Assembly: GCA_963681505.1 (NCBI GenBank)
Contig: OY811974.1
Location: 8,518,239-8,582,238 of the forward strand
DNA: 64,000 nt
Reading direction: 5' to 3'
Source: Eunapius fragilis
Taxonomy: Eukaryota > Porifera > Demospongiae > Spongillida > Spongillidae
Positions 290-62,625 of this stretch are shown here, piece after piece. Under the pieces are notes generated by a model. That model worked only from the letters and a program-made list of their open reading frames with translations. It was not told the DNA's origin and searched no databases. Positions within the stretch are counted from its first letter, which is position 1, and the number at the start of each line of letters is the position of its first letter. A program made the position numbers and the translations under genes.

Positions 290-1315
290 TAGCATTTGGG
301 GGCTGGTCTTTCAAAGGCTGTCATACTGTGATGATGTGTTAGTCTATAAGTATATGCAGTCATTCCAGGTGTTTAAATTTCACCCCAATCCAAAGAGGTG
401 TGGTCTTCATCAAAACCACTTTCCCCACCCCTCCAGTTGTTGCCACGGCTACGTCAGGGTGCATGGTTTATGTTTACATACACGTACATGTAAAACATTC
501 GGATAATTTGCGTTGCATTGTGCTAGAAGTGATGTATATGTATTTGGCTATCTGTGCCTTCTGAGTGTTTGTGTGTGTACTTGCATCACTGTGTAAAAGG
601 TTATATCAAATAGTGTACATGTATGTCATTCGTTAGCAGTGTATAAAATTGCATATTGGGACATCATTTTGTTGTGTATGCACTAGTATTGTAGCCTTCA
701 TCATTGTGCATGTATTGGGCTATTATTATGTCTGTATGCATAGCATGCTCACCTTGACACTGGGCTAAATCACCAGTGTTTGTATTGGCTACATTGTATA
801 TGTTTGTGTGTGTGTGTTTGTGTGTTTGTATGTGTGTTTGTGTGTGTGTTTGTGTGTTTGTATGTGTGTGTGTGTGTGTGTGTGTTTGTATGTGTTTGTA
901 TGTGTGTGTGTGTGTGCTTTGGTAGAAGTGCAGTTTGCTGGCTATGCACACACAACATGTGTGTTAGTACAGCAGTGACTATGTGCATGCATACATGGTC
1001 ACTGCTAAGGGACATTGCTGGGTGAAACTGTTCAATATACCAGTGTGTGTGTGTGTGTGTGCATGCGTGTGTGCGTATGTGTGTGTGTACATGTACAGTG
1101 TACATGTATGTGTGCGTGCGTGCATGTGTGTGTGCTTTGACTGACTGCAGTACATCTACAGTGTATGTATGTCATTTTAGCATGCAAATGATGTAATGCA
1201 AAATGATGTAATGTGTACGTACTGGAGCTGACAGAGTCCTGTTTCCATTTGAGCTGTATGTACATGAACTGGTCCTGTCCTGTTTCCATTCCGTTCATCT
1301 TGCCTCTGTTTCCAG

Positions 1316-3926
1316 CTGCCGTAGTGGCACCTGATGTGAGCTGGTCCCACCTGGCCATGAGCTATGAGCTAACAGGAGGACTGATACGTAACGCTGTCCT
1401 CTCTGCACTGGCCTTGGCCATCAAGGGTTGCCATGGCGGCACACTTGTCATCACAGAGCAGCACCTTATGGAGGGAGCCAGACTGCAGCTAAGGTGTGTG
1501 TGTGTGGAGAGAGTGAGGGAGGGGGAGGGTTGGTGGCAATTTAATTAGTAGATAAACCACTGTATACAAGTATACATGTATATGACAAAGATGACGACTG
1601 TTAGGGATTTAGATATTTAAATGGTGCCTAGCCATAAAGTATATCATTAAGCTTGTGAATATTGTGTACTTTTATTTATACTAAAGGCATGACCAGGTAT
1701 TACATCTGTGCACATTTAGCCAATGGGTTAGTGGCATTTAGCTGATGAGTCATATGACGTTTATGAACCATTAATTAATTGTATTCTTTTTTACTTTGAG
1801 GGGGGGGATGCTCGCTAAAAAGTTTTATCTCATTGGCACCTGGACTTATTATTTTTCAAGCTGGCAGGTGCAGGGTTGGTGGAAGGTGTTTTAGTAATAC
1901 TATGAGTATGTATGGATGTGGGCGTGGCTGGTCAAGGTTGCTCTTGTTGTGTGTACTGAATATCTCTACCTGCTCTCGATAAATTACATCTACTGTACTT
2001 AAAATAGTCCAAATGTCAAGCTTCTTTACGTGTTCAAATCAGTTAGCAATATTGATGAAAGTTAGCCAAATTAACCCCCTGGCAACCCCCTGGGGAAATA
2101 TCTCCTTTGCTACCTCCCCCCCCCCCCCCCCCCCCAGGGGTCTGCTAGAGATGGTGGACTTTGAGAGGCGGGTCATCCCCACCTTTGGTCTGAGGGACCT
2201 GGTGTACAGCCAGCCTACCATGGATACCCTCCAACACTTCCTCGTGGCCGCCAAGGCACGCAAGTTTGTGGCCGCCCAGTGGGGCTTCTCCTCTGAGGAG
2301 AACGTGGCCCAGACCCACGGCATCATTCTGCTGGTGTGCGGGCCTCCCGGGAGCGGGAAAACGGCCATCGCCCACGCCATGGGCTACGAACTAGGGCAGC
2401 CAATAAAGGTACTCTCCACACCCTCATCCTGGGCCATGTACATGAATATGAGTTGACATATAACTTTACATGTATAACAATAACCACACCAAACATCTAC
2501 ACATGTACATATAATTACCACGTAATAATAACTATGGGCATTTATAGCAACTACATGAACCAAAATTACATCTATTATTACAGGTAATTGTATATTCCAT
2601 GTTGGTTGGTGAAAGCTTGTGGTCAACTGGCGAGGGTGGAGAGTGGTTAGGGAGGGTGGAGGTGTGGTTAGTAGAAGTGGAAGGTGTGTTGATACAGGTG
2701 GCAGATAATCTTTTCTGTTTCAAAAAACAACGTAAATAGTGCAGTTGCACAAACTTAAGGTTTTGTTTAGCAGATAAGGAGGAAGGGTGTGGTTAGTTAG
2801 GGTAGAAGTTTAGTTGATGAAGGTGTGTTCCTCTCACCCCTCCCTCATACCCCCTCCCTCCCCCCTCACAGGAGGTGAACTGCACAGAGCTTCTCTCCCA
2901 CACGATGACTGCCAGTCCCAGGAACAATAGGGGCGTGGCTGCCTTCTTCAAAGATGCCCAGAGGGCCAATGCCATGGTGGTACTGGACGGAGCAGAAGTT
3001 ATCCTGGGAAGCTATGGAGGTGTGCTCTATTCAGAGTGGTATGTATATATTTCAAATGCTAGCTTTTGTTCTCTACAGTGGGCAGTTTGGTATCCAGCCT
3101 TGTTGGGTGTGAGACCGTCACCTTGGCATATCAGATTGAGCACTACAACGGGATAGTTGTCCTCACCAGTCGACAGCCGCTGGGCCAGTTGGACGTGCCA
3201 CGCCTACCTAGGCTGAGGTACATGTAGTTATGGTTGTGTGCACATGTGGATACGATTGCAGTGTAGTTGGTGTACTGCACATATTGAAATGCATAGTTTG
3301 TGCAGACAATAATGTAAAATGAATATGGCCAGACATGGAAGGCCAATGACACTACATGCATGTACCCATATCCCCATCTACACTAACAGCACACATGTTG
3401 TGTACCTATGACATGTCGCATACTTGTAAATGTCTGATACAAGTATTAGTTCTGATTTAAATGTCTTGAATATTTAATACCAACATTGGGTCTTCTAGTA
3501 CCATTAATGTAGCGTAAGGGAATATTTCACATGTAATTGATGAGTCTGCAGTATAATAATTGTACCGTTGAACTAATTAACTATAATAGTATTATGCATA
3601 AATGGCTGACCATTGAAGGTTAAGCAGTCCTTATTCTGCAGGTACCTATAGGAATTATTTTCATGCAGGCAGATATATGTGTACATCACATCATCACATG
3701 TACACACACTTGTACATCACATCATTACATACGTGTATACGTGCACTTGTATGTCACGTTGTACATCATCGCACCATTACATGTACGTGTACACATGCAC
3801 ACACTACAGATATGTTCTAGACCTCCACCCTCCTGACGTCCAGCTAAGAATGAAGCTGTGGGCCAAGCTGATACCAAGGAGAGCACCTGTGAGCACTGGT
3901 CTGGATTTTGTGGGGCTAGCAGAGAG

Positions 3927-3979
<53 letters not shown>

Positions 3980-4238
3980 TGTGTGTGCATGTATTTACAT
4001 GTATGTGTATGTGTGTATATGTGTGTGTGTGAAGCAGTGGTGACTTGCCTTCTATTTGCACAGGTTTGAGTTTACTGGTGGGCAAATTGCCAACAGCATA
4101 TGTTATGCCTCAGAGTGGGCATCAAATAGACCGCATTCAAATGCAGTCATCACAAATGACGACCTCAATGCAGCAGCAGAAGAGGAGTGGAAAAGAATGC
4201 AGCAGGGAATTTCTCCTGCAATGGGCATTTTTCAGTAA
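1316..4238 (+). CDS. Double-AAA ATPase, copy A, 3' part only
   Basis: Exons read from splice sites and phase: 1316-1493, 2138-2408, 2872-3038, 3086-3217, 3810-3926 and 4064-4238 (stop TAA). The first exon encodes the lid of the first AAA module ([12 protein letters not shown]). The rest encode the second AAA module: Walker A GPPGSGKT, a Walker B-like MVVLDGAE, a sensor-1 region VVLTSRQ, and a C-terminal lid FTGGQIANS ending in GIFQ. The intron after 3926 starts with GC (AG|GCAAGT), as in the other two copies. The exons for the first AAA core are absent; sequence upstream of 290 is LINE. I see no broken frame in these six exons. The gene name is not recognised. Confidence 0.85.
2117..2137 (+). 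promoter_or_regulatory. Poly-C splice acceptor tract
   Basis: An uninterrupted C run directly precedes the CAG acceptor of the Walker A exon. The same acceptor in copies B (before 24595) and C (before 60781) has C runs of other lengths, so this polypyrimidine tract is a mononucleotide microsatellite. Confidence 0.7.
3930..4032. repeat. TG microsatellite in an AAA-gene intron
   Basis: A (TG)n tract follows the GC donor of the last intron in copy A. It is shorter in B (26360-26422) and of different length in C (62575-62685), so it is length-variable between copies. Confidence 0.9.
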
Positions 4239-4520
4239 CTGAGTTTGTAATTGTAGTTGAGTTCGTTGATGGCACTGCTGAAAAGTGCAGTAAAGAATTT
4301 TTAATACATGTAGTTTCAAGTGATTGTGTAAATATTCCTAATACATTTACATGCATACATAAATTCCATCTTAAAGCCGTCCAAAATGAGATAGCAATGA
4401 AAATCCACATGTTGTTCAGTAGAGGTAGAGTCATTGTCACACTCCTGTGGGAACAGGAAGCAACAGACACTTTTGGTCAGCATGAACAATCTAATTAACC
4501 TGATCTTTGAGCACAGTGCC

Positions 4521-4639
4521 TAGTCTCGTACCCAGACCCACATCGCAGCTGCGGATGGAATACATCACCGCCTACGCGACTCGCGTAGGCGGTGATGTAT
4601 TCCATCCGCAGCTGCGATGTGGGTCTGGGTACGAGACTA
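4521..4639. mobile_element. 119-bp perfect palindrome MITE
   Basis: Two 59-bp arms are exact reverse complements around a single central base. The ends are TAGTCTCGTACCC and GGGTACGAGACTA. It is flanked by the 9-bp direct repeat CACAGTGCC (4512-4520 and 4640-4648). Copy B has one unduplicated CACTGTGCC here with no insert (about 26903), which is an empty site. An 8-9 bp target duplication suggests a hAT or Mutator-type family, but the family is not identified. Confidence 0.9.
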
Positions 4640-5510
4640 CACAGTGCCAGTCGTTTCTTCAGCAATTCCCATTGTTCTGTACGCACGGAAAAATAACCAT
4701 CGCTACTGCTGTAACGCTCGCAAAGATAATTAGCATAGTTTACATATGTGGTCAACTTTTTCACACCTAATAACTTATGATATTTAAAAGTTAGTATAAT
4801 ACATAAAAATACGCAGGGTAATAGCCTGCACTCATCCACAAAAATGCTTCCAAAAATGAAACTTTTGTGTGTTGAATCGATATAGAATGACCCATTACCT
4901 GCAGCGAAATCACTACCTCGCTTGCATCTACAAAATTAGTTCAATTCAGCCACACCTAACAGTAAGCACTCATATAATAAATATGGCTAAGGGGACTTTA
5001 CATACTCTTTACCAAGTTTATCTATTTTCCTTTGAGAATGCAAGTTGCTCCAGGAAAAAGTTCTAGCAGATGAAATACTGCGACATTATTCCATGGAGAA
5101 CATACAACTCAGAAGAGGAAAACAAGGATGTTTGTCTTGCTCCTTGACAGCCGACTGTACTTTACTAAGAACGGATGGGACACCCATCTGCTGATATATA
5201 AACAATGTGAGAATACTGTTTGGATATAGGCTACCACGTAAAAAAACATATTTTTTTATTTCAGTGGAAGGCAGGAATATAAAACGGTCGATAAAATGGC
5301 CATGCAATGTTTAAATTATCACCATCACGTACTATCTGCGATAACATTGCATCATGCATGTATTATTATTCGGTATATGCATGGCATGTAATCCCGACAT
5401 GTCTGTCTCGAAATGCCATTCGATATTGACTTAAGCTCCATGCAGCGCCATACATGATGGGATTATGATATCTGTGCCCCATGTAGTGCTAGGGTTTAAA
5501 ATGGCGTGCG
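4640..5510. other. Downstream flank of AAA copy A, no gene seen
   Basis: Non-coding flank shared almost base for base with 63294-64000 and, from about 4880 on, with 28235-28855 in unit B. Open frames here are short and differ between copies. I see no gene. Confidence 0.6.
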
Positions 5511-5536
5511 CCCCCCCCCCCCCCCCCCCCCCCCCC
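5511..5536. repeat. Poly-C tract of 26 bases
   Basis: Uninterrupted C homopolymer. The matching tract in unit B starts at about 28853 and has a different length. Confidence 0.95.
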
Positions 5537-5892
5537 ACAAATACATGCAAGTACATGTATGGTATCTGCATGTGTAGGAAGCAATCCTAACTTGGAAGTC
5601 TGCATGGGCATAATAAACTATACGCCTGTGAGTAGACAAAACATTGTGTGCCGGTTGTGGATTGAACAGTGTTTCTGTGGTGTACGGCACAGTGTGCATG
5701 CGTGGTGTGTGGACTGAAATGTGTTTGCATATGTGTGTCCGATGAGGACTGAATGGTGTACACGTATGTGTATTTGTAGGACTAAAAGTATTAAGATGTG
5801 TGGACGTTGCGCGTGTGTGAACTGAACAGTGTGAAGTGCAGCTGCAGGTTGGGTGCATGTGTGCAGTGAAGTTGTATGTGATCATAGATTAT

Positions 5893-6018
5893 GATCATAG
5901 GACTATGACATTTTCCCTTACTATTACAGACCCTTGTTTCCTTGCTTTTTACACCACCACTGTCTATATCTCACCAACTTTCTCATGGGGAATGTTTTTA
6001 GTTACTTGTTTCATAAAT
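5893..6018. mobile_element. Half copy of the 46203-46475 hairpin MITE family
   Basis: The run from CATTTTCCCTTACTATTACA through CACCAACTTTCTCAT to TTTACTTGTTTCAT-like sequence matches the right arm of the full hairpin at 46203-46475. The left arm is missing. The same half copy occurs at 29444-29565 in unit B. Confidence 0.7.
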
Positions 6019-6030
6019 TTTATTCTCATG

Positions 6031-6251
6031 CATAACTGCATGATAGTTTGGAATTTACAATATATTTACTACTGATCAAGTGCGGTACAAATGCGTTAGT
6101 AAATATGGTATATGTGACATCAACACAATAGTAAATATAAAGCTTTCATTTACTATAGCGGAAATGTCACAATACAATATTTACAACACATTTGCACCAT
6201 ATTTGAACAGCTAGTAGTAAATATACTGTAAATCCAAACTTTCATGCAGTG
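6031..6251. mobile_element. Foldback MITE of the ACTGCATGAAAGTTTGG family
   Basis: Long imperfect terminal inverted repeats of about 90 bp run from ACTGCATGATAGTTTGG to CCAAACTTTCATGCAGTG. Two relatives lie in unit B, at 29107-29321 and 29566-29783. Confidence 0.8.
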
Positions 6252-6504
6252 ATATCTCTAATTATACGCCTTACACTGACCGTACACATGTAGTTGATTG
6301 TAAATCATTTGCTACTTCTCCTGTAGTTTTCTGGTTTGGTATTGACAATTTTAAACTTGTCAAGATCCTGCCTTGTAATGATACGAGTAGCATTCAGTAC
6401 GGCCCAAATATAACATTACAATTAATATACAATTGACTATTTCCTCAAGTAGGCACTTTTCCAGCCAATTCTGAAGCTATTGGTCGACTTACCATTCTTT
6501 AATT

Positions 6505-6760
6505 GTGTTCCTATCCTAAGTTATGCGTGGTCAAGAAGAAGGATAATTCTGGGACTGGGTACGCGAGGACGTACCAGTACTCTTTTGTTCTCTACAACCG
6601 CGCGATTTTGCGACATAAAACATAGGACGAAATTAATCACTTTCGTCTTCTCGTTCGATTACAACAACTAGCTAAACGATCCGATCGTCAGGAGTCTCGT
6701 TATCACGGCTCGTGTGTTTTTAATGATTTCATAGACGGGATCAAGTCCTATATATAAGGT
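6505..6760 (+). pseudogene. Unclassified repeated coding fragment
   Basis: One frame is preserved between this copy, 30036-30290 and 46861-47045: a CSYP-x-LCV segment, a run of lysines, SGTGY, then a VLYNR-x-x-LRHKT motif. In this copy the frame meets a TAG just after HKT; the unit B copy has TAC there and continues to a GIKFYM end. It is probably the remnant of a mobile-element or multicopy gene. I do not recognise the family. Confidence 0.45.
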
Positions 6761-7035
6761 TGTAAGCGAAACTTCCGATGATGTGATGTGGATTGAACAG
6801 TGCGTGTGGTGTGGGCTGGAATATGTGTGCATGGGTGGTATGTTTACTGAACAGTGTGCTTGTGGAATGAACAATCTGTGTGTGTGAATGTGTGCGTGTG
6901 TGTGGACAGAACAGTGTGTGTAGTGTGCGGTTGGCTGCATGTGTGCAGTAAAGTGTGTGGATGTGCGTGTGATTATATCTATGGTGTGATGTGGAGTGTG
7001 TACTGAATAGTGTGTGTGGAATGAACTGCCTGTGT

Positions 7036-7141
<106 letters not shown>

Positions 7142-7643
7142 AACAGCGTGTGTTCGTGTGGATTGCATAGTGTGTGCGGTTTGTGGAATAAAGCTAAGGG
7201 TAGGAATCTTCATAAGTACTAACCTTTGTTGTACTTTCGATACAATCACGGAAAGCAGACATAGTACTGAATCTTTAAAAAAATCTACTAAGCTTTGTTG
7301 TAGAAGTAACTTTCGATGCACCTATATTACATTGGAAATCTGTCCTCAATTACTAGTACCTGTACTCTCCATTCTAGGCCCTATATACATAGACCATATC
7401 ATATTCCTCAGTTGTGATGTATACAGGGCCTGGACATGAGATAAATTGCTAAGGGTTACCGTACATTAAAACATATGCCATGTCATGCATGATCATTAAA
7501 AGGTCCTAAATCATGCATATTAAAATTTAGGCCCTAAACTACCCAACTAAGCCTATCGTTCAGGACCTATCATGCGTACTGCTAATATTATCGTAATCCG
7601 GACTCGGACTTTTCCGGGAATTGTTGAGACAGTGTTGTACATG

Positions 7644-7926
7644 TATTTATACACCTGCAGCATAACGGAGAACGATGTTGAATATGAATTGCAAACGTAA
7701 TTTTGACGTACAGCACACCAATGCCCGTATCCAGGTCCGCTTGCTTACTCTCGGTCCGTACACGCGGGATAACATGCATATGCCGATCACGTAAGACGGT
7801 TGCGATCACGTGCTAATATGTGCCTGTCATTGCGCTTGCAAGCCGCTGTGACTGTCTGAAGTCCTTGAGGGAACAGTTGCGGTTTGTGGGCTTCTTGTTT
7901 AGACGGTTGTGTCACAGCCTGGACCG
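7644..7926. other. Upstream region of the micro-exon peptide gene
   Basis: Unique sequence after the end of the A/B homology and before the TATA box of the peptide gene. No gene is seen. It should contain the upstream control region of the gene starting at 7988. Confidence 0.4.
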
Positions 7927-7934
7927 TATATAAG
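7927..7934 (+). promoter_or_regulatory. TATA box of the secreted peptide gene
   Basis: TATATAAG stands 61 nt before the ATG at 7988. A start site would be expected at about 7955-7960, giving a short 5' leader of about 30 nt. Confidence 0.65.
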
Positions 7935-7987: not shown

Positions 7988-9390
7988 ATGGCCTCAATAA
8001 TCGTGAAAGTAGCTGTAATTGCAGCCGTTTTTGTCATCGCCGTACACGGCCGACCTCGCAATGATGAGCGAGGTACTGCAGATATTATGCATAACATTGA
8101 CATGTAATTGTTATACATTTACAATTTGAATGAAAGGTATGGAAGAGGAGATGAAATCTAATGGTATGTTTGTATGCCTCATTCCTTCTCCCCCCCCCCG
8201 AGCCCTTCCGTAAACATGTATCACCCAAATCCCACATTGTATGTGACCGGCCGTTAACAAACAATGATATATTGCTCCACCAGGCTGTTGGACATCTGTA
8301 AGTGTGCAACGTAAACTTGTAGCCACACTAAACATATTTTACTTCTTCATATGATATTCACCTCATGACAACGAAGTGCGTAAGTTCATCCACTGATAGA
8401 TGATCTTCAATTCTTGGATTATTTTGCTTCCAATGCATAATGATATTCAAGACAGTAAGTTAGTCACTCACATCAACGATTGCGTTACTTGTATTTGCCG
8501 CATAGTCTCCAGGCCATGTAAGTACTCAAGATTGGTGGTGGTAAGAAAACCACATTTTGCTCCATGAACGTAAAATGGCGTCTCTCAAATCACTTATCTC
8601 TTAGTGCGTAAGTGCGTCAATGAAATTTATGGCATAATATTTACTTATCCTCTAAATTTCCAAAACAGGCCGGCCTTGAATGCGATTACGTGAGTACAAT
8701 TTTCAACATGCATGCCCCACGGGATGGTAAACGATTGCTACATCCCAATCCTCGTTCCACAATTAATCTCTTAGTGCGTAAGTGAATTTTGATTAGTACA
8801 TTATGCCACCTAATATACTTGAATGCATTTTCACATCAGCATCCATTCGTAAGTATTTGTTACAATGACGAACCATTCATTTGTCCGTTCAAATTCAACG
8901 ACGGCCTCCTCGATGGACTTTACAGATAGTAAGCGATGACTGGTAGAATTTATGTCTCAAGTTATAAGCTTTTCTTCTTTTGCATTTGATTTCTAGCGAG
9001 TGAGTTATCCAATTAATTGTACAGTTGTTTCAATAAGTGAATGCATTGTAATATAACTTCAAAAACGATCTCCTTTTTTTCCAGAAAGTAAGTAAATCAT
9101 GCCGGTTCTCTGTCATGTTAAACACTTTCGGTTGCCTTTTATTCTAGTGTGTAAGTATAAATGCAACAGTTTGAAGTGACCTCCATATGTATACCACCTA
9201 AAGTGCAAAAACTTTGGGAATTGCTCTTGAATTTGAAGCATGTACGTATTTTTTGAATTATATGAATCTGCTTTTATGCTATGTAATTTTATCGTCTCTG
9301 TTGCCTCAATTACTTCAACCAAATTGGTACGTCTCTCATCGTATCAATAAATCAATTTAACAGGTCTATCCGAATTATAGCACTCCATGA
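7988..9390 (+). CDS. Secreted six-cysteine peptide from a micro-exon gene
   Basis: Predicted 64-aa precursor from 15 coding exons: 7988-8072, 8284-8297, 8377-8379, 8452-8454, 8506-8517, 8605-8607, 8669-8689, 8775-8777, 8840-8848, 8926-8928, 8997-8999, 9085-9087, 9148-9150, 9239-9241, 9364-9390. Every internal exon has an AG acceptor and a GTAAGT, GTGAGT, GTAAGC or GTACGT donor. The first intron is phase 1 and all later ones are phase 0. Exon 1 is a signal peptide (MASIIVKVAV..., cut predicted after AVHG) followed by RPRNDER. The rest carries six cysteines spaced C-x3-C-x5-C-x4-C-x2-C-x6-C, within the range of inhibitor-cystine-knot (knottin) peptides, and ends in YSTP and TGA. Introns are 51-122 nt apart from the first (211 nt). 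Four of the six cysteines are each encoded by their own 3-nt exon. Function is unknown; a secreted defence or signalling peptide is inference. No copy exists in unit B. Confidence 0.8.
8377..9241 (+). other. Run of nine single-codon exons
   Basis: Nine predicted exons are exactly 3 nt: TGC 8377, ACA 8452, TGC 8605, TGC 8775, ATA 8926, CGA 8997, AAA 9085, TGT 9148 and CAT 9239. Larger exons of 12, 21 and 9 nt (8506, 8669, 8840) are interspersed. Typical contexts are CTCTTAG-TGC-GTAAGT, TTCTAG-CGA-GTGAGT and TTTCCAG-AAA-GTAAGT. All are phase 0 on both sides, so skipping any one keeps the frame. Confidence 0.75.
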
Positions 9391-10269
9391 ATATTTGAAG
9401 CGGCATCTACCCTACCCGAGTACGTTAACTCATTGGTTTATTGTACTCATGGTTGACTCATAAATTTCCCAGACCATTCACAAAATGCAGTTTGAGCTAT
9501 GTAGGACATATAGGACTTGCAAGTTGCGTTTTTTTTTTAATTGGCTGTGTTTTTCGGCGCTCAATGAAAACAATTCTCTAATATATGTATTTCAATTCTC
9601 CTCGCGCGGCACGTACATGCAAATAAAATCAAAACAGTGTGATACGTTCCAGTGTTGCCGCGGTAAAAAAAATTTGGACTAACCGTTATTATTAACCGCG
9701 AGATGTGTATCGCAGGTAGTCCATTTAACCTTGGTTAATCTACATTTCATTTCTATTGCATACGGCGGGAAAAACGAGTGAAAAGCAAGCAGAGCCGAGC
9801 GACTTAGTGCCTGCCGCCTGCTCTCCCATATCACAATTCACAGCGTGGCCTACTACGTATACTGAGATATGCAGGGTCAACTCACGCTAATGTATGCAGA
9901 TACGTAAGCATACATGCGCATATGCGGACCAGTATGTTGGCTCGTACAAAATATGCAAATATCAAGAGCAGTGTGCAGAAGGGGGTTTACTATTCGAAGG
10001 GTATCAAACAATTAAACACACTTAATTTGGAAACGAGCGTGTGCAGTATAAATAGTGCGTAATTAATAGGAATATTTAAGCCAGAGATCAATACTTTGTA
10101 CACAGAAAAAAAAGGTTTGAAATACATTTGGCCATCTTTTTCAACAATTTTATAACATGGCATTTTAAATTCATGATGATATCTGTAGTTTGTGGAAAAT
10201 ACAACAGTTTGCGTCAGTTTTCCACGGATATACATATTAGCCTCCACCGTTGTAGTATTATTCGTAGAA
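9391..10269. other. 3' flank of the peptide gene, mostly empty
   Basis: Contains a likely polyadenylation signal AATAAA at 9622-9627, 232 nt after the stop codon. At 9650 a hAT-like terminus, CAGTGTTGCCGCGG, begins; its mirror image ends at 35680 in another locus. No partner end was found here. Otherwise AT-rich, with no gene seen. Confidence 0.5.
9622..9627 (+). promoter_or_regulatory. Polyadenylation signal AATAAA
   Basis: First AATAAA downstream of the micro-exon gene stop codon on the coding strand. Confidence 0.5.
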
Positions 10270-13250
10270 AAATATACGTTTCTGTCGGTTGAACGTCGTG
10301 AATTAGACAGAAACTATGCTCCCTCCGTTTTGTGATTGGTTGTACAGCACGTGATTGCCACGTGGATAGAGGTTTAAATAGAAATGGAGCTGGGCTCTTA
10401 TTCAGTCTAAGTGTCGTGCACGTGCTGCTAACATTTTCTTGCTGCGATGCCTGGTGAGGGAGAAACGAATGAGCAGACTACGACAAGCGACTCGATAGCC
10501 CTACTACTAGAAGGCATGAGGCAGATGCAGGAGGAGCTCAAGGTGGTGCGACAGGGGCAGGAGGAGACAAGCCAGCGGTTCGCTATACAGTCGCATAAGG
10601 ATAGCTACTCCTTCAAGAAAAAAGGCAACGAGTGCCAGTTTAAAGCTAACCAGCAAGTGACAGATCGTCTGGCGGTGGTTGCGAGCTGTCTTGACCGGGT
10701 GGAGGCTATCGGCACATCTGGGAAAGAGCAGTTAGAGAGGGCGAGGAAAGAAGTTGTCGAAGGTTACTGGTATGTCCTTCCTCGCCCGCAGGCAGAAACT
10801 TATAAAGTTGGCGGATCGTTCTGAGTCGGGGTGGGCCGTCGTCGAGGAGTACGACGCGGATGCCCTAGCCGACAACTCTGAGGACGAGCGGAAGATCGAG
10901 AAGGCCGAAAAAGCGGCGGAAAGGAAGTTGGCCAAGCGAAGGAAGGCACAGGATGTGAAGCATAAAGCAGGGATTGCCAGGAGTGACGCTGCAGAGACCG
11001 TAAGGCAGACCTTACCAGTGCTGCAACCGAAGATCCCCAGTGCCGAGTCCAAGGCTGGAGGCAGTGGCATGGCCAGAGCTAGATTCCCTGTGGGGTCATG
11101 CTTCAGATGCGGTGACCCTGGCCATTTTCAGAGAGAGTGCCCAAAGATGGCACCGCCAAGGGCAGAGTATCCATTAATCAGTGGTGTTGAGCATGTGGAC
11201 ATGGAGGGTGTTGATGGAGGGGATGTGTCACCTTATATGTGGAGAAGTGGGGAGAATGTGTTACCTGAGGAAGACAAGTGTATCTCTAATACATATAGAT
11301 GCTGGGAAGCCCAAGAGGGAGATGATGGTATTGGTTCTGTAAGGGGACGGTTGGGTGCGTGTATTTCATACTGGGAGAAGGTGCTGTGTGCACCACCATG
11401 GGTGTTGGAAACACTGAGAAATGGGTATGTTAGAACTACCCTTCTATTCAGAACCGGCACCCTATGCACGTCCTAATCAGCATTCTGCTCAAGTAGAGGT
11501 AGAATTTGTTTCAAAAGCAGTAGCAGAGTTACTAAATGGTGGGTACATTGAGAAGGTATCCGAGCTACCTGTGGTATGTAGCCCATTATCTGTAGTTACC
11601 AATGGAGTGGGTAAACAACGGCTTGTAGTTAATCTACGGCATGTTAATCGCTCTCTTTGGAAACAAAAGTTCAAGTATGAAGATTTGCGTGTGGCGATGA
11701 TGATGTTCAAACAAGGTGAGTGGATGTTCTCATTTGATTTGAAAGCTGGTTATCATCATGTGGATGTTGCTAAGTGTCATCGTAAGTACTTGGGTTTTGA
11801 ATGGGGGGGAAGCTTTTACACATTTGTGGTATTGCCATTTGGGTTGTCCTCAGCACCTTATGTATTCACTATGATGATGCGTCCCTTGGTACGATTATGG
11901 CGTAGTAAGGGGTTAAAGGCAGTTGTGTATCTTGACGATGGCATTGTAGCAGTACCGGATGAGACAGGTGCAATTACTGCCAGTGGCTTCGTAAGGTACA
12001 CACTATATAAGGCGGGGTGGGTGTGTAATGAAGCTAAGTCCACCTGGGTGCCAACACATAGGCTGTCATGGTTAGAGTTTACTATGGATCTAGAGTTGGG
12101 GTTAATCATGGTGCCTGACAAGAAGATTGAAGCCTTAAAAGAAAAATTGCTTACAGCCATGGAGCAACCAATGCTTAGAGCTAGATTTATAGCAAGCTTA
12201 GTGGGTAAGATTATATCAATGAGTCTAGCTCTTGGCTCAGTGGCCAGATTCATGACACGTGCTTTATATGCACTGCTGCTAACTAGGCAGGCATGGTGCG
12301 ATAGGTTGCCTTTAACATCTGAGGCGAGGGAGGAACTTAAATTCTGGTCTGAGTCACTCAAAGAGTATAATGCACAACCTATATGGCACAGTCCATCTGC
12401 AGTCAGATGTGTGTACTCTGATGCTAGTGACACTGGTTACGGAGGCTATACAGTTGAGCATGGCATGCATGTTGCACAAGGGATGTGGTCACCAGAGGAA
12501 GCAAAGCAGAGCTCTACCTGGAGGGAACTGGTAGCAGTGGGTAGGGTGTTAGATTCAGTTGCAGGCAGGCTTTGTAATGCTCGAGTGCGTTGGTTCACAG
12601 ATAATCAGAATGTTGTACGCATTCTTCAAGTAGGTAGCAGAAAGCCCCATCTTCAGGTGGAGGCCTTAAGAGTGTTTAGATTTTGTATAAAGTACAATAT
12701 TCGGCTTGAGCCGGAATGGGTACCCAGGGAGATGAATGAGCTTGCAGACTATTTTAGTCGTGTGGTAGACTATGACGATTGGTACATTGACCATACTGTG
12801 TTTAAAATGGTGGATGATTGGTGGGGGCCACATAGAATCGATCGATTTGCAGCTCCATACAACAAGCAGGTAGAACGATTCAACTCACGTTATGCATGTT
12901 CTGGGACAGAGGCAGTGGATACTTTCACAGCGAACTGGTATGGGGAGAACAACTGGTGGTGTCCACCACCCAGTCTTATCCCAAGGGTGATTAGGCATGC
13001 AGAGTGTTGCAAAGCCCAAGGGACATTAGTAGTTCCATGGTGGGAGTCAGCCCCGTTTTGGCCCTTGTTGTGCCCTAAGGGTGGCAAATGGGCGTCATTT
13101 GTAGTGGATTGTGGGACATTGCCATTGTCAGAAGAGCTTATCAGACCAACAATTAGGTTCTACCCCCTGACAACCATATTCAAAATCTACCCGCAATGCT
13201 ATCACTGCAGTGTTAGGGAATTTTCCTCCAAATAAAGCTGAACCCATTTT
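10270..13250 (+). mobile_element. DIRS-type retroelement fossil
   Basis: Parts in order: a short leader with a TTTAAATA box; a gag-like coiled-coil and basic region from 10447; a CCHC zinc knuckle (CFRCGDPGHFQREC) at about 11098-11140; then a long frame (11421-13235) with reverse transcriptase (LPFGLSSAPYVF, then YLDD), RNase H (YSDASDTGYGGY), and the DRFA...NWWCPPPSLIPRV domain that follows RNase H in DIRS/PAT-like elements. The tyrosine recombinase expected downstream is not found, so the element is incomplete. The gag part carries one or two breaks, while the RT-RNase H frame looks whole. This suggests a fairly young but defective copy. Confidence 0.85.
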
Positions 13251-21310: not shown

Positions 21311-24300
21311 TGTATGTATGTATGTACATGTATGTATGTTTTTTTGTTTGTTTGTTTGTTTGTTTGTTTGTTATGTGTCATGTTGTCTTTCCTTTACTCA
21401 AGGGAAAGTTCTGTTCTTCTCCCCTAACGTGACTGTACTCTATGCATGTATGTACATGTGTATGATGGAAGTTATTATCATGTATGTTCAGTATTGTTCC
21501 ATTGTCATTTCCCGTACTCAAGGAGCTCTTGAAGTTCCTCTTCAGAGAAGCTAAGATCCATAATGCTATCTTGTTCTTTGATGAGTGTGAGTCGCTGTTT
21601 GAGTCCAGGGAGACACGACCCAACCCAAACCTAGGTGTCCTGCTAACTGAGGTACCTCTAACACTATGATCCCTGCTCTCATTTGGTTGGTGGGTTTTTA
21701 CGTCCCAGATTGAGCAGTATGATGGCGTGATCATCTTGGCAACCAACAGGCACCATGACCTTGATGAAGCCATGCATAGGAGGTAACTGTTGTGAGTGGT
21801 TTTGGCCACACCTCTTAATGATGCTGACCACACCTCTTAATGATGCTGACCACACCTCTAAATGATGCTGACCACACCTCTCTGCAGGATACAGCTGGCC
21901 CTGTCCTTTGCTGTGCCTGACTACACCCTCAGGGTTAGTATATGGCGCTCCCATGTCCCAGGTATTGTGTGTGTGTGTGTGTGTGTGTGCACATTTATGT
22001 ACATGTGCATGTATTGTTTTTTGCCATATATGGTTGTGCTTGTCCCAATGTAACAACTGCATGCTCTAAAAGCAGTTTTGTATTTTTATTTTTCATTTTC
22101 TACTATCAAATGTACACATATACTCATAAAATGAATAGTGAGTGGCTAACATCAACTTTTCCTCACCTGTGGTTTGCACATGTATGGTGGTTGCCATGGT
22201 AGCCATCTGTGGTACATGCGTGATGGTGTACGTGGGTTTTGCCATACAAGGGTCACTCCTTAAAACAAGGGGAAGGGGCGGGGCTTATTGTGTCATTGTT
22301 GAGATGTGTTCACAACAACAAGAACACGCATGTGTGTATACCCTTGGTGTGTAGTAGTGTTACACTCACATATCTTATATGTACAGGGATGTGTGGTTTG
22401 TGTGATGATGTAAGTGGGCGTGGTAGGGAAATACGAGGATCACTCACATGCATCAAGGGGGAGTTGTACATTCTGTCATGCCATCTGTGTGATCATTACA
22501 AGGGTGATGATCACTTGATGTTAACTGCATGGGTGTATGGGCCCTTGGTGTTGGTGTCATTACACCCATGTACTCATGTATTACATGTAAGCCTTGCATG
22601 CATGCACACACCTAAACACACACATACACACACACACACACACACACCACACACACACACACACAATTTCATGAGCTCTATTTGGAAGACCTCTGCAAGC
22701 TCACTTGTGCCGCAAGGGTGGTGTGGTGGGTGTCGTCTTTTAGCATTTGGGGGCTGGTCTTTCAAAGGCTGTCATACTGTGATGATGTGTTAGCAGCGAT
22801 CGTCTTAAAGTATATGCAGTCATTCCAGGTGTCTAAATTTCACCCCAATCCAAAGAGGTGTGGTCTTCATCAAAACCACTTTCCCCACCCCTCCAGTTGT
22901 TGCCACGGCTACGTCAGGGTGCATGGTTTATGTTTACATACACGTACATGTAAAACATTCGGATAATTTGCGTTGCATTGTGCTAGAAGTGATGTACATG
23001 TATTTGGCTATCTGTGCCTTCTGAGTGTTTGTGTGTGTACTTGCGTCACTGTGTAAAAGGTTATATCATACAGTGTATGTCATTAATTAGCAGTGTATAA
23101 AATTGCATATTGGGACACCATTTTGTGCTTGTGTATGCACTAATATAGTAGCCTTCATCATGTGTTGGGCTATTATTATGTCTGCATGCATAGCATGCTC
23201 ACCTTGACACTGGGCTAAATCACCAGTGTTTGTATTGGCTACATTGTATATGTTTGTGTGTGTTTGTGTGTGTGTGTGTGTTTGTGACTGTGTGCGTGTG
23301 TGTGTGCTTTGGTGGAAGTGCAGTTTGCTGGCTATGCACACACAACATGTTTGTTAGTACAGCAGCAGTGACTATGTGCATGCATACATGGTCACTGCTG
23401 AGGGACATTGCTGGGTGAAACTGTTCAATATACCAGTGTGTGTGTGTGTGTGTGCATGCGTGTGTGTGCGTGTGTGCGTATGTGTGTGTGTACATGTACA
23501 GTGTACATGTATGTGTGTGTGCGTGCATGTGTGTGTGCTTTGACTGGCTGCAGTACATCTACAGTGTATGTATGTCATTTTAGCATGCAAATGATGTAAT
23601 GCAAAATGATGTAATGTGTACGTACTGGAGCTGACAGAGTCCTGTTTCCATTTGAGTGTATGTACATGAACTGGACCTGTCCTGTTCCCATTTCATTCAT
23701 CTTGCCTCTGTTCCCAGCTGCCGTAGTGGCACCTGATGTGAGCTGGTCCCACCTGGCCATGAGCTATGAGCTAACAGGAGGACTGATACGTAACGCTGTC
23801 CTCTCTGCACTGGCCTTGGCCATCAAGGGTTGCCATGGCGGCACACTTGTCATCACAGAGCAGCACCTTATGGAGGGAGCCAGACTGCAGCTAAGGTGTG
23901 TGTGAGTGTGGAGAGAGTGAGGGAAGGGGAGGGGAGTACAAGGGAGGGGAGGGGGAGGGGAGGGGAGGGGGAGGGGGGGTTGGTGGCAATTTAATTAGTA
24001 GATAAACCACTGTATACAAGTATATATGTATATGACAAAGATGACGACTGTTAGGGATTTAGATATTTAAATGGTGCCTAGCCATAAAATGTATCATTAA
24101 GCTCATGAATATGTGTACTTCTATTTATACTAAAGGCATGACCAGGTATTACATCTGTGCACATTTAGCCAATGGGTTAGTGGCATTTAGCTGATGAGTC
24201 ATATGAAGTTTAAGAACCATTAATTAATTGTATTCTTTTTTACTTTGAGGGGGGGGGGGGGGGGATGCTCGCTAAAAAGTTTTATCTGATTGGCACCTGG

Positions 24301-26628
24301 AGTTATTATTTTTCAAGCTGGCAGGTGCGGGGTTAGTGGAAGGTGTTTAAGTAATACTATGAGTATGTATGGATGTGGGCGTGGCTGATGAAGGTTGCTC
24401 TTGTTGTGTGTACTGTGTTACCTGCTCTCGATAAATTACATCTACTGTACTTAAAATAGTCCAAGTGTCAAGCTTCTTTATGTGTTCAAATCAGTTAGCA
24501 ATATTGATGAAAGTTAGCCAAATTAACCCCCTGGCAACCCCCTGGGGAAATATCCCCTTTGCTACCTCCCCCCCCCCCCCCCCCCCCCCCCCAGGGGTCT
24601 GCTAGAGATGGTGGACTTTGAGAGGCGGGTCATCCCCACCTTTGGTCTGAGGGACCTGGTGTACAGCCAACCTACCATGGATACCCTCCAACACTTCCTC
24701 GTGGCCGCCAAGGCACGGAAGTTTGTGGCCGCCCAGTGGGGCTTCTCCTCTGAGGAGAACGTGGCCCAGACCCACGGCATCATTCTGCTGGTGTGCGGGC
24801 CTCCCGGGAGCGGGAAAACGGCCATCGCCCACGCCATGGGCTACGAACTAGGGCAGCCAATAAAGGTAATCTCCACACCCTCATCCCGGACCATGTACAT
24901 GTATATGAATATGAGTTGACATATAACTTTACATGTATAACAATAACCACACCAAACATCTACACACGTACGTTTAATTACCACATAATAATAACTATGG
25001 GCATTTATAGCAACTACTTGAGCCGAAATTACATCAATAATTTTATATTCCATGTCAGTTGGCGAGAGCTTGTGGTCAACTGGTGAGGGTGGAGAGTGGT
25101 TGATGAAGGTGGAGGTGTGTGGTTAGTGAGGGTGGAGGTGTGATTGGTAGAAGTGGAAGGTGTGTTGATACAGGTGGCAGGTAATCTTTTCTGTTTCAAA
25201 AAACAACGTAAATAGTGCAGTTGCACAAACTTAAGGTTTTGTTTAGCAGATAAGGAGGAAGGGTGTGGTTAGTTAGGGTAGAAGTTTAGTTGATGAAGGT
25301 GTGTTCCTCTCACCCCTCCCTCACCACCACCTCCCTCCCCCTTCACAGGAGGTGAATTGCACAGAGCTTCTCTCCCACACGATGACTGCCAGTCCTAGGA
25401 ACAATAGGGGCGTGGCTGCCTTCTTCAAAGATGCCCAGAGGGCCAATGCCATGGTGGTACTGGACGGAGCAGAAGTTATCCTGGGAAGCTATGGAGGTGT
25501 GCTCTATTCAGAGTGGTATGTATATATTTCAAATGCTAGCTTTTGCTCCTTGCAGTGGGCAGTTTGGTATCCAGCCTTGTTGGGTGCGAGACCTTCACCT
25601 TGGCATATCAGATTGAGCACTACAACGGGATAGTTGTCCTCACCAGTCGACAGCCGCTGGGCCAGTTGGACGTGCCACGCCTACCTAGGCTGAGGTACAT
25701 GTAGTTATGGTTGTGTGCACATGTGGATACGATTGCAGTGTAGTTGGTGTACTGCACATATTGAAATGCGTAGTTTGTGCAGACAATAATGTAAAATGAA
25801 TATGGCCAGACATGGAAGGCCAATGACACAACATACATGTACGCATATCCCCATCTACACTAACAGCACACATGTTGTGTACCTATGACATGTCATATAC
25901 ATGTAGATGTCTTATACAAGTATTAGTTCTGATTTAAATGTCTTGAATATTTAATACCAACATTGGGTCTTCTAGTACCATTAATGTAGCGTAAGGGAAT
26001 ATTTCACATGTAATTGATGAGTCTGCAGTATAATAATTGTACCGTTGAACTAATTAACTATAATAGTATTATGCATAAATGGCTGACCATTGAAGGTTAA
26101 GCAGTCCTTATTCTGCAGGTACCTATAGGAATTATTTTCATGCAGGCAGATATATGTGTACATCACATCATCACATGTGCACACACTTGTACATCATCCC
26201 ACCATTACATGTATGTGTACACATGCACACACTACAGATATGTTCTAGACCTCCATCCTCCTGACGTCCAGCTAAGAATGAAGCTGTGGGCCAAGTTGAT
26301 ACCAAGGAGAGCACCTGTGAGCACTGGTCTGGATTTTGTGGGGCTAGCAGAGAGGCAAGTGTGCGTGTGTGTGTGTGCATGTATTTACATGTATGTGTAT
26401 GTGTGTATATGTGTGTGTGTGAAGCAGTGGTGACTTGCCTTCTATTTGCACAGGTTTGAGTTTACTGGTGGGCAAATTGCCAACAGCATATGTTATGCCT
26501 CAGAGTGGGCATCAAATAGACCGCATTCAAAGGCAGTCATCACAAATGACGACCTCAATGCAGCAGCAGAAGAGGAGTGGAAAAGAATGCAGCAGGGAAT
26601 TTCTCCTGCAATGGGCATTTTTCAGTAA
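16433..26628 (+). CDS. Double-AAA ATPase, copy B, most complete but damaged
   Basis: Predicted exons: 16433-16655 (frames change), 16656-16868, 16998-17054, 17140-17251, 17422-17542, 17752-18065, 18175-18254, 18329-18453, 18537-18579, 18858-18971, 19089-19210, 19331-19474, 19745-19846, 20010-20088, 21002-21093, 21523-21651, 21709-21782, 21888-21961, 23718-23895, 24595-24865, 25349-25515, 25563-25694, 26238-26354, 26454-26628. This gives about 1,080 residues: a helical N-terminal part, a Glu-rich acidic stretch (exon 17752), then two AAA modules. An alternative acceptor at 17733 would lengthen the acidic exon by 18 nt in frame. Damage compared with copy C: the donor after 18065 reads AT instead of GT, and exon 18537 lacks one A of an AAAA run. 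The 5' exon changes frame twice near G-rich runs, which could be real decay or assembly error. The start codon is not identified, and no named family was recognised. Confidence 0.8.
17285..17421. repeat. Polypyrimidine CTTCCTCC repeat before an exon
   Basis: An almost pure C/T tract of CCTTCCTCCTCC units ends at the CAG acceptor of exon 17422. The copy in unit C (53172-53277) is shorter, and the B/C homology begins at its left edge (17284 / 53162), so the tract marks a duplication breakpoint. Confidence 0.85.
19615..19725. repeat. 14-bp minisatellite in an AAA intron
   Basis: Tandem units of about 14 bp, GTCATGTGATGGCA, just before the exon at 19745. Unit C has more copies with an extra GAT (55480-55668). 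Confidence 0.9.
20095..20300. repeat. 29-bp minisatellite in the P-loop intron
   Basis: About six units of GGGATGTGAGGGGCACAGG then GGTTACCTAG. Unit C has about three to four (56068-56165). Confidence 0.9.
20418..20910. repeat. 26-bp minisatellite in the P-loop intron
   Basis: About 19 near-perfect units of 26 bp, each with GGTGTTGGGATGGTCCC followed by ATCTATGGA. Unit C (56285-56965) has about 26 units with several variant types, so copy number and variant order differ between duplicates. The long reading frames across it are by-products of the repeat. Confidence 0.95.
21094..21330. repeat. TATG tetranucleotide microsatellite
   Basis: (TATG)n starts directly at the GTATGT donor after exon 21002-21093, so the 5' splice site is itself part of the repeat. 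It is followed by (GTTT)n at about 21338-21371. Unit C carries a longer array (57164-57510). Confidence 0.95.
22615..22665. repeat. CA microsatellite
   Basis: Interrupted (CA)n within the long intron before exon 23718. The unit C counterpart is at about 58820-58863. Confidence 0.9.
24595..26628 (+). other. Second AAA module of copy B, catalytically altered
   Basis: Walker A GPPGSGKT is intact. The Walker B strand reads MVVLDGAE, with Gly directly after the Asp where the catalytic Glu normally sits. The sensor-1 position reads VVLTSRQ instead of an ATN-type Asn. The pattern is the same in copies A and C. By the family's known chemistry, such a module should bind but poorly hydrolyse ATP. It ends with a canonical lid, FTGGQIANS, and a short C-terminus. 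Confidence 0.75.
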
Positions 26629-26932
26629 CTGAGTTTGTAATTGTAGTTGAGTTCGTTGATGGCACTGCTGAAAAGTGCAGTAAAGAATTTTTAATACATG
26701 TAGTTTCAAGTGATTGTGTAAATATTCCTAATACATTTACATGCATACATAAATTCCATCTTAAAGCCGTCCAAAATGAGATAGCAATGAAAATCCACAT
26801 GGTGTTCAGTAGAGGTAGAGTCATTGTCACACTCCTGTGGGAACAGGAAGCAACAGAAACTTTTGGTCAGCATGAACAATCTAATTTACCTGATCTTTGA
26901 GCACTGTGCCAGTCGTTTCTTCAGCAATTCCC

Positions 26933-28233
26933 ATTCACCCCCAAAAATCAACGAGGGATGTCTTCATCATCTATATCATAACATTGTAGTTCCGTTTGCA
27001 TATTCACTGATGCCTGTGTCAGAATTTAAATCATTGATGATATTCTGCTTCCCTATACTAGCAGCATATAGTAAAGGATGGTTATGAAAAAAAATTTTCA
27101 ATACATCCATAGACTGGAAATGGCTCTCCAGTCACATCTTCAAGGCAGTTCCAGCACCCCATCTCTTCTCTCAAGTTATACATGTACATGTAATCCTCCA
27201 TCGATCTGCCTCCTGTTCGGATATGCAATAATTACTGGTGGTACATCTTACACAAGTTGGACTTGTAATAACTTTTATTCATTGGCCCACAGTAAAACTC
27301 TCAACATCACCCATCTCAGAATAACAGTCATCCTTACTCCCAAACATTGGGCTTTGATTTTCTATGGAAGCCATATTTGTTATTCCAAATTTCATGCGTC
27401 TTACATAAATATAGTAATCATAATTATGTCATTCTTGAAGCTTAAATGTCCCTCTCAACATCATCAAGTAATTTTCGTATACTCATCAATAAAATGTCAA
27501 CGGGTTTATATTACACACTGATCTTGAGCAACCTCAATAAGATGTATAGCATCAGAAGTTGAGCATATTTGGTACAAACCAATTGACGTGCAGTTCAACT
27601 ATTATACACATGCAAGACCTCATGTAATTTACCGTGCTCTTGTGCTTGTTTCATTCTCTGTGTTTCGTGCACCAGGATCGCATCAGTCTGCACCACGTTC
27701 CATGAACCCACTACATTCGAGCGTTGGAAGTGTTCATGCAATCGGAGGTAACACTCATCGACATTATGAATATAATTATATCCCTCTTCGCGCGCGCAAG
27801 ACGTACAGACCATTTTCATCTGTCATGTGACAATTCCGTAATCTGCCTTACGTCAGCATCACACAACATAAATTAATATATGATTTGCGGGATTGGAACA
27901 TGCTCAAGTTATGCACCTATCATTGTTACGTGAGACCCCCCCCCCCCCCCTCTGGGGCGAACTACATGTAGGGCGAAGTCAGGAATAAGTGGGGATTTGA
28001 CGTGTGAATATCATTACTGGTCACACATTTGACCATAGTCGGGCACGCATTATAGACCTTTTATCAGACCACGTAGTATAGACATATTATATTAACATAT
28101 TATTATATTATTATATAGACATATTATATTAACCCCCAACCAGGGGCAGTTTGCTTTAATAAAGGTGAAATCCCTCCCAATGCCCCAAGGGGGGGTGGGG
28201 GGGTCTCACGTAACAATAATGGGCGCATTACCG
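26933..28233. other. Segment unique to unit B
   Basis: It replaces about 220 bp found in A (4666-4890) and C. It contains a MITE at 27922-28217 and a TA-rich palindromic stretch at about 28075-28135. I see no convincing gene. Confidence 0.6.
27922..28217. mobile_element. MITE with ATTGTTACGTGAGACCCCC ends
   Basis: Terminal inverted repeats of about 20 bp: ATTGTTACGTGAGACCCC on the left and GGGGTCTCACGTAACAAT on the right. It is only in unit B, so it was inserted after or during the rearrangement. Confidence 0.75.
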
Positions 28234-28851: not shown

Positions 28852-28880
28852 GCCCCCCCCCCCCCCCCCCCCCCCCCCCC
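28852..28880. repeat. Poly-C tract in unit B
   Basis: Long C homopolymer corresponding to 5511-5536 in unit A. Confidence 0.9.
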
Positions 28881-29106
28881 AAATACATGCAAGTACATGT
28901 ATGGTATCTGCATGTGTAGGAAGCAATCCTAACTTGGAAGTCTGGGCATAATAAACCACGCCTGTGAGTAGACAAAACATTGTGTGCCGGTTGTGGATTG
29001 AACAGTGTTTCTGTGGCGACGGCACAGTGTGCATGTGTGGTGTGTGGACTGAAATGTGTTTGCATATGTGTGTCTGATGAGGACTGAACAGTGTACACGT
29101 ATGTGT

Positions 29107-62570: not shown

Positions 62571-62625
<55 letters not shown>

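What the first reader, a model, noticed from the sequence alone, without database searches (positions are those of the whole stretch)
7988..9390. Secreted cysteine-rich peptide gene built from micro-exons, nine of them one codon long
Seen: a TATA box, a signal-peptide exon, then in 1.1 kb a series of AG-(3n nt)-GTRAGT cassettes that all join in frame to a stop, giving a 64-aa precursor with six cysteines in C-x3-C-x5-C-x4-C-x2-C-x6-C order. Nine internal exons are only 3 nt. Known: 3-nt exons exist but are rare (one in vertebrate NCAM), and schistosome micro-exon genes for secreted proteins use short in-frame exons, mostly longer than 3 nt. Inference: an extreme micro-exon gene. The coincidence of strong splice sites, unbroken phase and a knottin-like cysteine pattern is unlikely by chance.
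Basis: partly seen in the sequence, partly recalled or inferred. Interest (0 to 1): 0.96.

Follow-up and report, generated by a model that had tools for sequence, protein, structure and literature searches.

The report
Secreted peptide genes with one-codon exons
A freshwater sponge appears to spell out small secreted, often cysteine-rich peptides largely one amino acid per exon, in dozens of places in its genome, which would be an extreme way of building a gene that I did not find described.

Summary
The cassettes are real and beyond chance. The window lies in the freshwater sponge Eunapius fragilis (assembly statistics match). My gene model has 15 exons, eight of exactly one codon, and gives a 72-aa secreted precursor with eight cysteines. 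The gene is not alone. Paired YAG-NNN-GTRAGT cassettes occur 939 times genome-wide against 83 for the reversed pattern. I listed 65 loci, 46 with at least two places; two arrays read hold 32-35 one-codon exons. Of 54 relatives of one leader exon, 34 lie upstream of a listed array on the same strand, about 0.34 expected. Codons differ more than flanking introns between units of an array, but in only 1 of 8 whole-locus comparisons significantly. TAA/TGA open 1 of 939 pairs. No RNA evidence was available, and ten paper searches listed no description. Probably a family of secreted disulfide-rich defence peptides; that function is inferred.

The parts
7927..7933 (+). TATA box (TATATAA)
   Evidence: read; consensus only
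7988..8072 (+). exon 1: signal peptide and start of propeptide, MASIIVKVAVIAAVFVIAVHGRPRNDER+G; donor GTACTG, phase 1
   Evidence: unchanged in paralog; 2 copies in genome
   Evidence: unchanged in paralog
8284..8297 (+). exon 3, 14 nt, phase 1 to 0, residues CWTS; 3 of 14 nt differ in paralog (TS to EY)
8377..8379 (+). one-codon exon TGC (Cys), AAG acceptor
8452..8454 (+). one-codon exon ACA (Thr), AAG acceptor; least secure
8506..8517 (+). exon of 12 nt, SPGH; the paralog's one change here (CCA to CCT) is silent
8605..8607 (+). one-codon exon TGC (Cys)
8669..8689 (+). exon of 21 nt, AGLECDY; paralog AGYECDY
8775..8777 (+). one-codon exon TGC (Cys)
8840..8848 (+). exon of 9 nt, HPF
8926..8928 (+). 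one-codon exon ATA (Ile), donor GTAAGC
8997..8999 (+). one-codon exon CGA (Arg)
9085..9087 (+). one-codon exon AAA (Lys)
9148..9150 (+). one-codon exon TGT (Cys)
9204..9230 (+). proposed terminal exon, CKNFGNCS and stop TGA, AAG acceptor; 2 nonsynonymous changes in paralog; chosen after seeing the paralog
9622..9627 (+). candidate poly(A) signal AATAAA, unchanged in the paralog (the one at 9346-9351 is changed there)

Best explanation
The window gene is one member of a genome-wide class of sponge genes for small secreted, often cysteine-rich peptides whose mature part is encoded largely by one-codon exons. Shown by sequence: a signal-peptide exon, one or two transitional exons that bring the reading frame to phase 0 (followed in five loci), then a series of introns, mostly about 50-120 nt, with YAG and GTRAGT ends enclosing exactly 3 nt (sometimes 6, 9, 12 or 21), then a terminal exon. 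Inferred: each intron is removed by intron definition, since 3-nt exons cannot be defined across the exon, probably one after another, so that each step adds one codon to the reading frame. Peptides lengthen by tandem duplication of the intron-plus-codon unit, and in some arrays codons then change faster than introns. Because every such exon is a whole codon in phase 0, losing or skipping one never breaks the frame. The products are most likely secreted disulfide-rich defence (antimicrobial or deterrent) peptides; this last step is inference from secretion, cysteine content and residue change.
For: Cluster beyond chance in the window. The 98% paralog keeps all eight one-codon exons of my model with their splice sites, and shows 8 changes in 107 mature-exon nt against 4 in 841 intron nt (Fisher p 7e-6; without the terminal exon, chosen after seeing the data, 6/80 against 4/787, p 8e-5); 5 codons changed residue, 1 was silent. 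Genome: 939 cassette pairs against 83 reversed; at least 100 on chromosome 1 for 3-nt gaps against 2 for 4-nt gaps. In 18 stretches the nearest YAG before GTRAGT (within 60 nt) is exactly 3 nt away in 251 of 308 cases on the sense strand and 0 of 55 antisense. Arrays with 32 (L041, strict pattern) and 35 (L055, looser pattern) one-codon exons. 34 of 54 related leader exons lie upstream of listed arrays, about 0.34 expected. Within arrays, codon positions 1+2 differ more than flanks: 30/52 against 5.3% in pairs picked for alike flanks, and, on the flank not used for picking, 39/66 against 193/792 and 46/60 against 235/720 (p 1e-8 and 3e-11). TAA/TGA open 1 of 939 pairs, 29 expected for even codon use. 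50 of 280 codon exons are Cys.
Against: No transcript was seen. The TAA/TGA deficit could also be selection against a second donor (AG-TAA-GTAAGT holds an overlapping GTAAGT), so it speaks for splicing more than for codon reading; with only about 94 independent pairs it is p 0.05 or 0.003. Faster codon change is not general: of 8 whole-locus comparisons 1 is significantly faster (L043/L044), 3 are higher but not significant, 4 lower, e.g. L052/L054 0/30 against 289/2006. The within-array result rests mainly on L041 and L055, and the flanks were compared without gaps. L053 has TAA and L051 TAG in a slot. Frame through the transitional exons was followed by hand in the window, L041, L050, L055 and L057 only, and failed to resolve in L044. 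The 939 count includes some short tandem repeats, and 19 of the 65 listed loci rest on one place. The fetched stretches were picked because they hold the pattern, so their 3-nt peak is partly ascertainment. No unbroken relative, Pfam family or significant PDB match was found. Function is unproven.
Confidence: 0.85

Rival explanations
1. The arrays are tandem repeats (minisatellite or introner-like intron copies) with pseudo splice sites; the spliceosome removes each array as one long intron and joins the signal exon to a distant exon.
For: In L041, L042, L055 and L057 units are tandem and alike, and one L041 unit has 586 matches genome-wide. Short tandem repeats do match such patterns (4-nt control; C22:775511).
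Against: A neutral repeat would not differ most at the 3 nt between AG and GTRAG, nor avoid TAA/TGA there, nor sit behind related signal-peptide exons. In L050, L052-L054 and the window gene the units' flanks are scarcely alike (entropy mostly 1.5-2 bits; window units differ at 30-39 of 48 flank bases), yet the 3-nt exons are kept.
Confidence: 0.08
2. Recursive splicing: the AG-NNN-GT sites are ratchet points whose 3 nt are normally removed again, so they help remove a long intron and are not coding.
For: AG and GT lie close together; L057 has an AG directly followed by GTAAG before its array. Known ratchet points join AG and GT (recalled).
Against: Ratchet sites should have 0 nt, not exactly 3 nt, between AG and GT; introns are short (median 81 nt) and need no ratchet; the residue-changing substitutions and 18% Cys codons are unexplained.
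Confidence: 0.04
3. The exons are real, but there is no special diversification: gene conversion or unequal exchange keeps introns alike while old, different codons persist, and the products are ordinary structural or signalling peptides.
For: Loci on chromosome 1 include near-identical duplicates. Codons are not faster than introns in most whole-locus comparisons, and L052/L054 look constrained. L043-L047 end in LLGK before a stop, like an amidated signalling peptide.
Against: Does not explain the excess of exon change between the two window paralogs, whose surroundings are about 98-99% alike.
Confidence: 0.3

Closest known systems
Schistosome micro-exon genes (MEGs)
   Different: As recalled, MEG exons are about 6-36 nt; here most are exactly 3 nt, in arrays of up to 35, some with a shared intron family. 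Homology was not tested by direct comparison.
Aphid bicycle genes
   Same: Recalled: secreted, fast-evolving, many micro-exons, cysteine pairs.
   Different: Recalled exon sizes are mostly above one codon; insect genes; not compared here.
Single 3-nt exons (mouse Ncam, Drosophila troponin T)
   Same: Exons of exactly one codon exist (passages of PMC8042270).
   Different: There a single 3-nt exon is reported; here 8 (window) to 35 (L055) are predicted in one gene.
Conotoxin-like precursor superfamilies
   Same: Works like: conserved signal peptide, variable cysteine-rich mature part, gene copies (recalled).
   Different: Codon-by-codon exon layout; no sequence family match.

Membership tests
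Micro-exon gene (MEG) in the structural sense | Most of the mature coding part in exons of 36 nt or less that are multiples of 3 (definition recalled) | tested here: met
   13 of 15 predicted window exons are 27 nt or less and multiples of 3; the others are 85 and 14 nt; arrays of L041 and L055
Micro-exon gene (MEG) in the structural sense | Signal peptide on a conventional first exon | tested here: met
   by eye, hydropathy and leader homology; no signal-peptide program. The scan found a leader of one of two related kinds in 12 of 18 stretches, none in L048, L049, L052, L054, L056, and missed the window's own because its donor is GTACTG. It is not specific alone: 28 antisense candidates in the same stretches.
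Micro-exon gene (MEG) in the structural sense | Micro-exons shown in mRNA, with variants by skipping | not testable with these tools
   no transcript data
Schistosome MEG families | Homology to a known MEG family | tested here: inconclusive
   no Pfam match for five typed precursors or parts up to E 10; whether Pfam holds MEG models was not checked
Knottin (inhibitor cystine knot) | Six-cysteine order with adjacent Cys 3-4 and a knot (recalled) | tested here: not met
   predicted window order C-x3-C-x5-C-x4-C-x2-C-x6-CC-x5-C: the CC pair is Cys 6-7; the fold was not tested
Introner-derived introns | Near-identical introns dispersed in many unrelated genes by insertion (recalled) | tested here: inconclusive
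   586 matches of one unit, a lower bound; many of the listed ones lie in runs about 91 bp apart; ordinary genes were not examined

The most novel reading that the evidence does not exclude
These are codon-slot genes: the intron is a standard, homogenised cassette and the single codon inside it is an exchangeable payload, diversified by selection or by an unknown active process. In-frame skipping of slots could further make a combinatorial set of secreted peptides from one gene. That would be a new way of generating molecular diversity in an animal without adaptive immunity.
Probability: 0.22. Interest if true: 0.98.

Novelty: new variant of a known kind. Interest (0 to 1): 0.94.

Why it matters
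If transcripts confirm it, dozens of genes in one animal encode peptides residue by residue, with runs of more than 30 consecutive one-codon exons. Standard gene prediction and short-read aligners would probably miss such genes (inference), so a secreted peptide repertoire may be hidden in published sponge genomes. The arrays would be a natural test of how a spliceosome handles exons too small for exon definition, and of how new codons enter a protein by duplication of an intron unit.

Tried and rejected
Chance: rejected. A 5-nt reading of the exon ending at 8517 (8513-8517, listed): the paralog loses the AG it needs, while the 12-nt reading takes the same change as silent. Borders of three exons were wrong by one or two bases (7989-8074, 8927-8929, 9205-9231), so its printed translation is meaningless; correct borders are, and the same 8 substitutions are exonic under both. 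In one search the paralog offset printed for exon 8775 points to an earlier TGC exon; the letters are the same.

Mended on re-checking: the 5.3% flank rate comes from pairs picked for alike flanks and so is too low; one search picks on one flank and measures on the other (24% and 33%, compared without gaps), and the codon excess stays but is smaller, with position 3 at 14/33 and 14/30, also above the flanks. The random expectation used guessed lengths for C18, C20, C21 and C22. My notebook says 105 rows for and 13 leaders; 100 and 12 are right.

Looked for an unbroken relative of the mature peptide in the genome: none at E up to 10, but the tool says an empty answer shows nothing. Intron unit in viral contigs: none. 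Rfam (gathering threshold) and tRNA scans of the window: none. Pfam: none. PDB: only insignificant matches, E 0.34 or worse. Structure prediction was not run: I judged that spliced products would not pass its rule on sequences. The 18S family search failed twice; the species came from assembly statistics. The 4-nt control was noisy: 285 matches against 1716 reversed, largely short tandem repeats among the rows shown, so I use only its chromosome 1 part (2 rows).

Paper searches. Judged by titles and abstract starts, none of the listed papers describes arrays of one-codon exons. The library holds only open-licence papers and no preprints.

Full report
What was checked first. The stretch 7988-9390 holds a TATA box just upstream, an ATG with a hydrophobic leader, and a one-strand run of short cassettes between AG and GTRAGT. 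Across the whole window the motif YAG-NNN-GTRAGT occurs seven times, five of them within 555 bases of the + strand at this place; shuffles of the window gave 2.48 on average and 1 of 100 reached seven. With exon lengths 3, 6, 9 and 12, seven cassettes fall in about 650 bases here; the only other cluster of three or more in the window and the 40 kb fetched beside it is that of the paralog.

The gene model. I prefer a 15-exon, 72-aa model: exons 7988-8072, 8137-8163 and 8284-8297, then phase 0 throughout, eight exons of one codon, others of 12, 21 and 9 nt, and a terminal exon 9204-9230. Predicted introns are 51-120 nt. The precursor is MASIIVKVAVIAAVFVIAVHGRPRNDERGMEEEMKSNGCWTSCTSPGHCAGLECDYCHPFIRKCCKNFGNCS, with eight cysteines. 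Three acceptors are AAG (8377, 8452, 9204).

The paralog. A tandem copy lies at C4:8584755-8586365, 98% identical. Between 7146 and 10500 there are 21 substitutions; 8 fall in the 107 nt of mature exons and 4 in the 841 nt of introns between them (Fisher p 7e-6). Leaving out the terminal exon, which I chose after seeing the differences, it is 6/80 against 4/787 (p 8e-5) (three exon borders corrected without changing which substitutions are exonic). Five codons change residue (T-E, S-Y, L-Y, G-V, N-D) and one is silent. The signal-peptide exon is unchanged.

The organism. G000 has 218,937,333 bases in 24 contigs, C1 24,992,492, C4 14,351,435 and C7 10,094,019. The Eunapius fragilis genome note (PMC12616128; abstract and found passages seen) gives 218.91 Mb, 23 chromosomes plus a 28.5 kb mitochondrial genome, and chromosomes 1, 4 and 7 of 24.99, 14.35 and 10.09 Mb.

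The class. Two YAG-NNN-GTRAGT cassettes 50-80 nt apart occur 347+592 = 939 times in the genome, the reversed pattern 83 times. The 100 places listed are all on chromosome 1, in 14 stretches when merged within 10 kb. The same pattern with 4 nt lists 2 on chromosome 1; genome-wide it gives 285 (reversed 1716), with many short tandem repeats among the rows shown. Requiring a Cys codon first gives 127 against 11; the listed rows lie on fifteen contigs and include one evident tandem-repeat artefact at C22:775511. I fetched 17 stretches with arrays. In these and the window gene, the nearest YAG before a GTRAGT is 3 nt away in 251 of 308 cases on the sense strand and in 0 of 55 on the other; 280 codon exons (YAG-NNN-GTRAG) include 50 Cys and 3 stop codons; the median intron between neighbours is 81 nt. 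These stretches were chosen for the pattern and include near-duplicate loci.

The largest arrays. L041 has the leader MLKELALIVTLLALFADARPQ..., a 23-nt exon that ends in phase 0, and 32 strict one-codon units in its main run, a few more with weaker sites, closing with Cys-Cys-Cys. L055 on C19 has a related leader and 23-nt exon, 35 one-codon units (looser pattern), a different series of codons, and the same closing Cys-Cys-Cys. L057 reads C H T R P A C P L S G N C R S G V K I G G Q T Y C C C (frame). L048 lists W C G S K C P G G C Y N L C C C A S G P G F P L P (no leader found in the stretch). L043 and L044 give ...LLGK followed by a 17-nt exon that begins TGA, not cysteine-rich; the frame through the transitional exons of L044, the one I looked at, is not settled. 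In the other fetched loci the frame was not followed.

The leader family. A search with the L041 leader exon found 54 places at E up to 10; 34 of them have a listed cassette pair or intron unit within 12 kb downstream on the same strand, where about 0.34 would be expected at random with rough lengths for some contigs. A second leader (MLVLIAALFALSA...) serves L050, L051 and L053; the window's leader is a third, found only in its two copies.

What varies. Among 340 pairs of units within a locus with at most 7 of 48 flanking intron bases different (13 loci searched, 332 pairs from L041 and L055), 315 encode different residues, 1 differs silently and 24 are the same codon. In 26 non-overlapping pairs, positions 1 and 2 differ in 30 of 52, position 3 in 7 of 26, flanks in 5.3%. 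That flank rate is lowered by the choice of pairs. Picking on one flank and measuring on the other gives positions 1+2 39/66 and position 3 14/33 against flank 193/792, and 46/60 and 14/30 against 235/720 (p for positions 1+2 1e-8 and 3e-11; flanks compared without gaps). Between whole paralogous loci the picture is mixed: L043/L044 codons changed faster than introns (12/33 against 276/1596, p 0.008); L043/L046 4/27 against 104/1549 (p 0.11), L050/L053 4/48 against 147/2517 (p 0.31) and L053/L054 7/36 against 444/2444 (p 0.49) are higher without significance; L050/L052 5/36 against 319/1921 is lower; L052/L054 0/30 against 289/2006 looks constrained; L044/L045 0/36 against 6/1705 and L046/L047 0/27 against 14/1587 are too young to tell. 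So codon slots often follow other rules than the introns, in both directions.

Stops. Of 939 pairs only one begins with TAA or TGA, that of L053. Even codon use would give 29 and the base make-up of the 280 sampled slots 56; with zero in about 94 independent pairs the p-values are 0.05 and 0.003. TAA and TGA after AG also make an overlapping GTAAGT or GTGAGT donor, so the deficit may reflect splicing accuracy. Either way the sites behave as used splice sites.

How it would work. Exons of 3 nt cannot be recognised across the exon, so introns must be recognised as units; strong donors and acceptors fit this, though they are partly built into the search pattern (inference). Each splicing step would join one codon to the growing frame. 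Tandem duplication of a unit adds one residue without harming the frame. The products are secreted, many are cysteine-rich, and some change quickly, which resembles defence or venom-like peptides; the role is inferred. Pfam and PDB searches gave no relative.

Comparison with print. Single 3-nt exons are known in mouse Ncam and Drosophila TnT (PMC8042270, passages). Schistosome micro-exon genes and aphid bicycle genes are the closest kinds, described here from memory. Ten paper searches listed no paper that, by title and abstract start, treats arrays of one-codon exons; most subscription papers, and all preprints, are outside that library. I file it as a new, extreme variant of the micro-exon gene. 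Transcripts would decide, and I could not test them.

Noticed in passing
290-7645, 22741-31123, 58940-64000: A segmental duplication, about 91-97% identical, occurs three times in the window (the third cut by the window end) and includes a gene with an AAA-ATPase-like motif ([15 protein letters not shown], by eye). In the middle copy the similarity ends at 31123, before where the micro-exon gene would lie.
   Followed up: partly
10432-13235 +: Retrotransposon-like ORFs (zinc knuckle, reverse-transcriptase-like motifs) about 1 kb downstream of the micro-exon gene (by eye only).
   Followed up: no
43195-45959 -: Retroelement-like gag-pol ORFs in several pieces (by eye only).
   Followed up: no
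8596-8614 and 8766-8784: Two of the TGC exons share the 19-base stretch ATCTCTTAGTGCGTAAGTG around the splice sites, perhaps a trace of unit duplication within the window gene.
   Followed up: no
L043, L044 (C1:22.38-22.41 Mb): Peptides ending LLGK before a TGA at the start of the next exon: a possible C-terminal amidation signal, unlike the cysteine-rich members.
   Followed up: partly
L053 and L051 (C1:18.03 and 17.97 Mb): A codon slot reads TAA (L053) or TAG (L051); these copies may be decayed or may skip the slot. Left as they are.
   Followed up: no
L051 and L052 (C1:17.965-17.985 Mb): L051 holds codons like the first part and L052 codons like the second part of L050 and L053, so the two may be one gene stretched by an insert; they are counted as two loci.
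   Followed up: no
L057, - strand, about 756-762: An AG directly followed by GTAAG (exon end or ratchet-like site) before the array.
   Followed up: no
L050, - strand, about 5363: A likely one-codon exon AAG with a GC donor (GCAAGT), so counts that require GT donors miss some exons.
   Followed up: no
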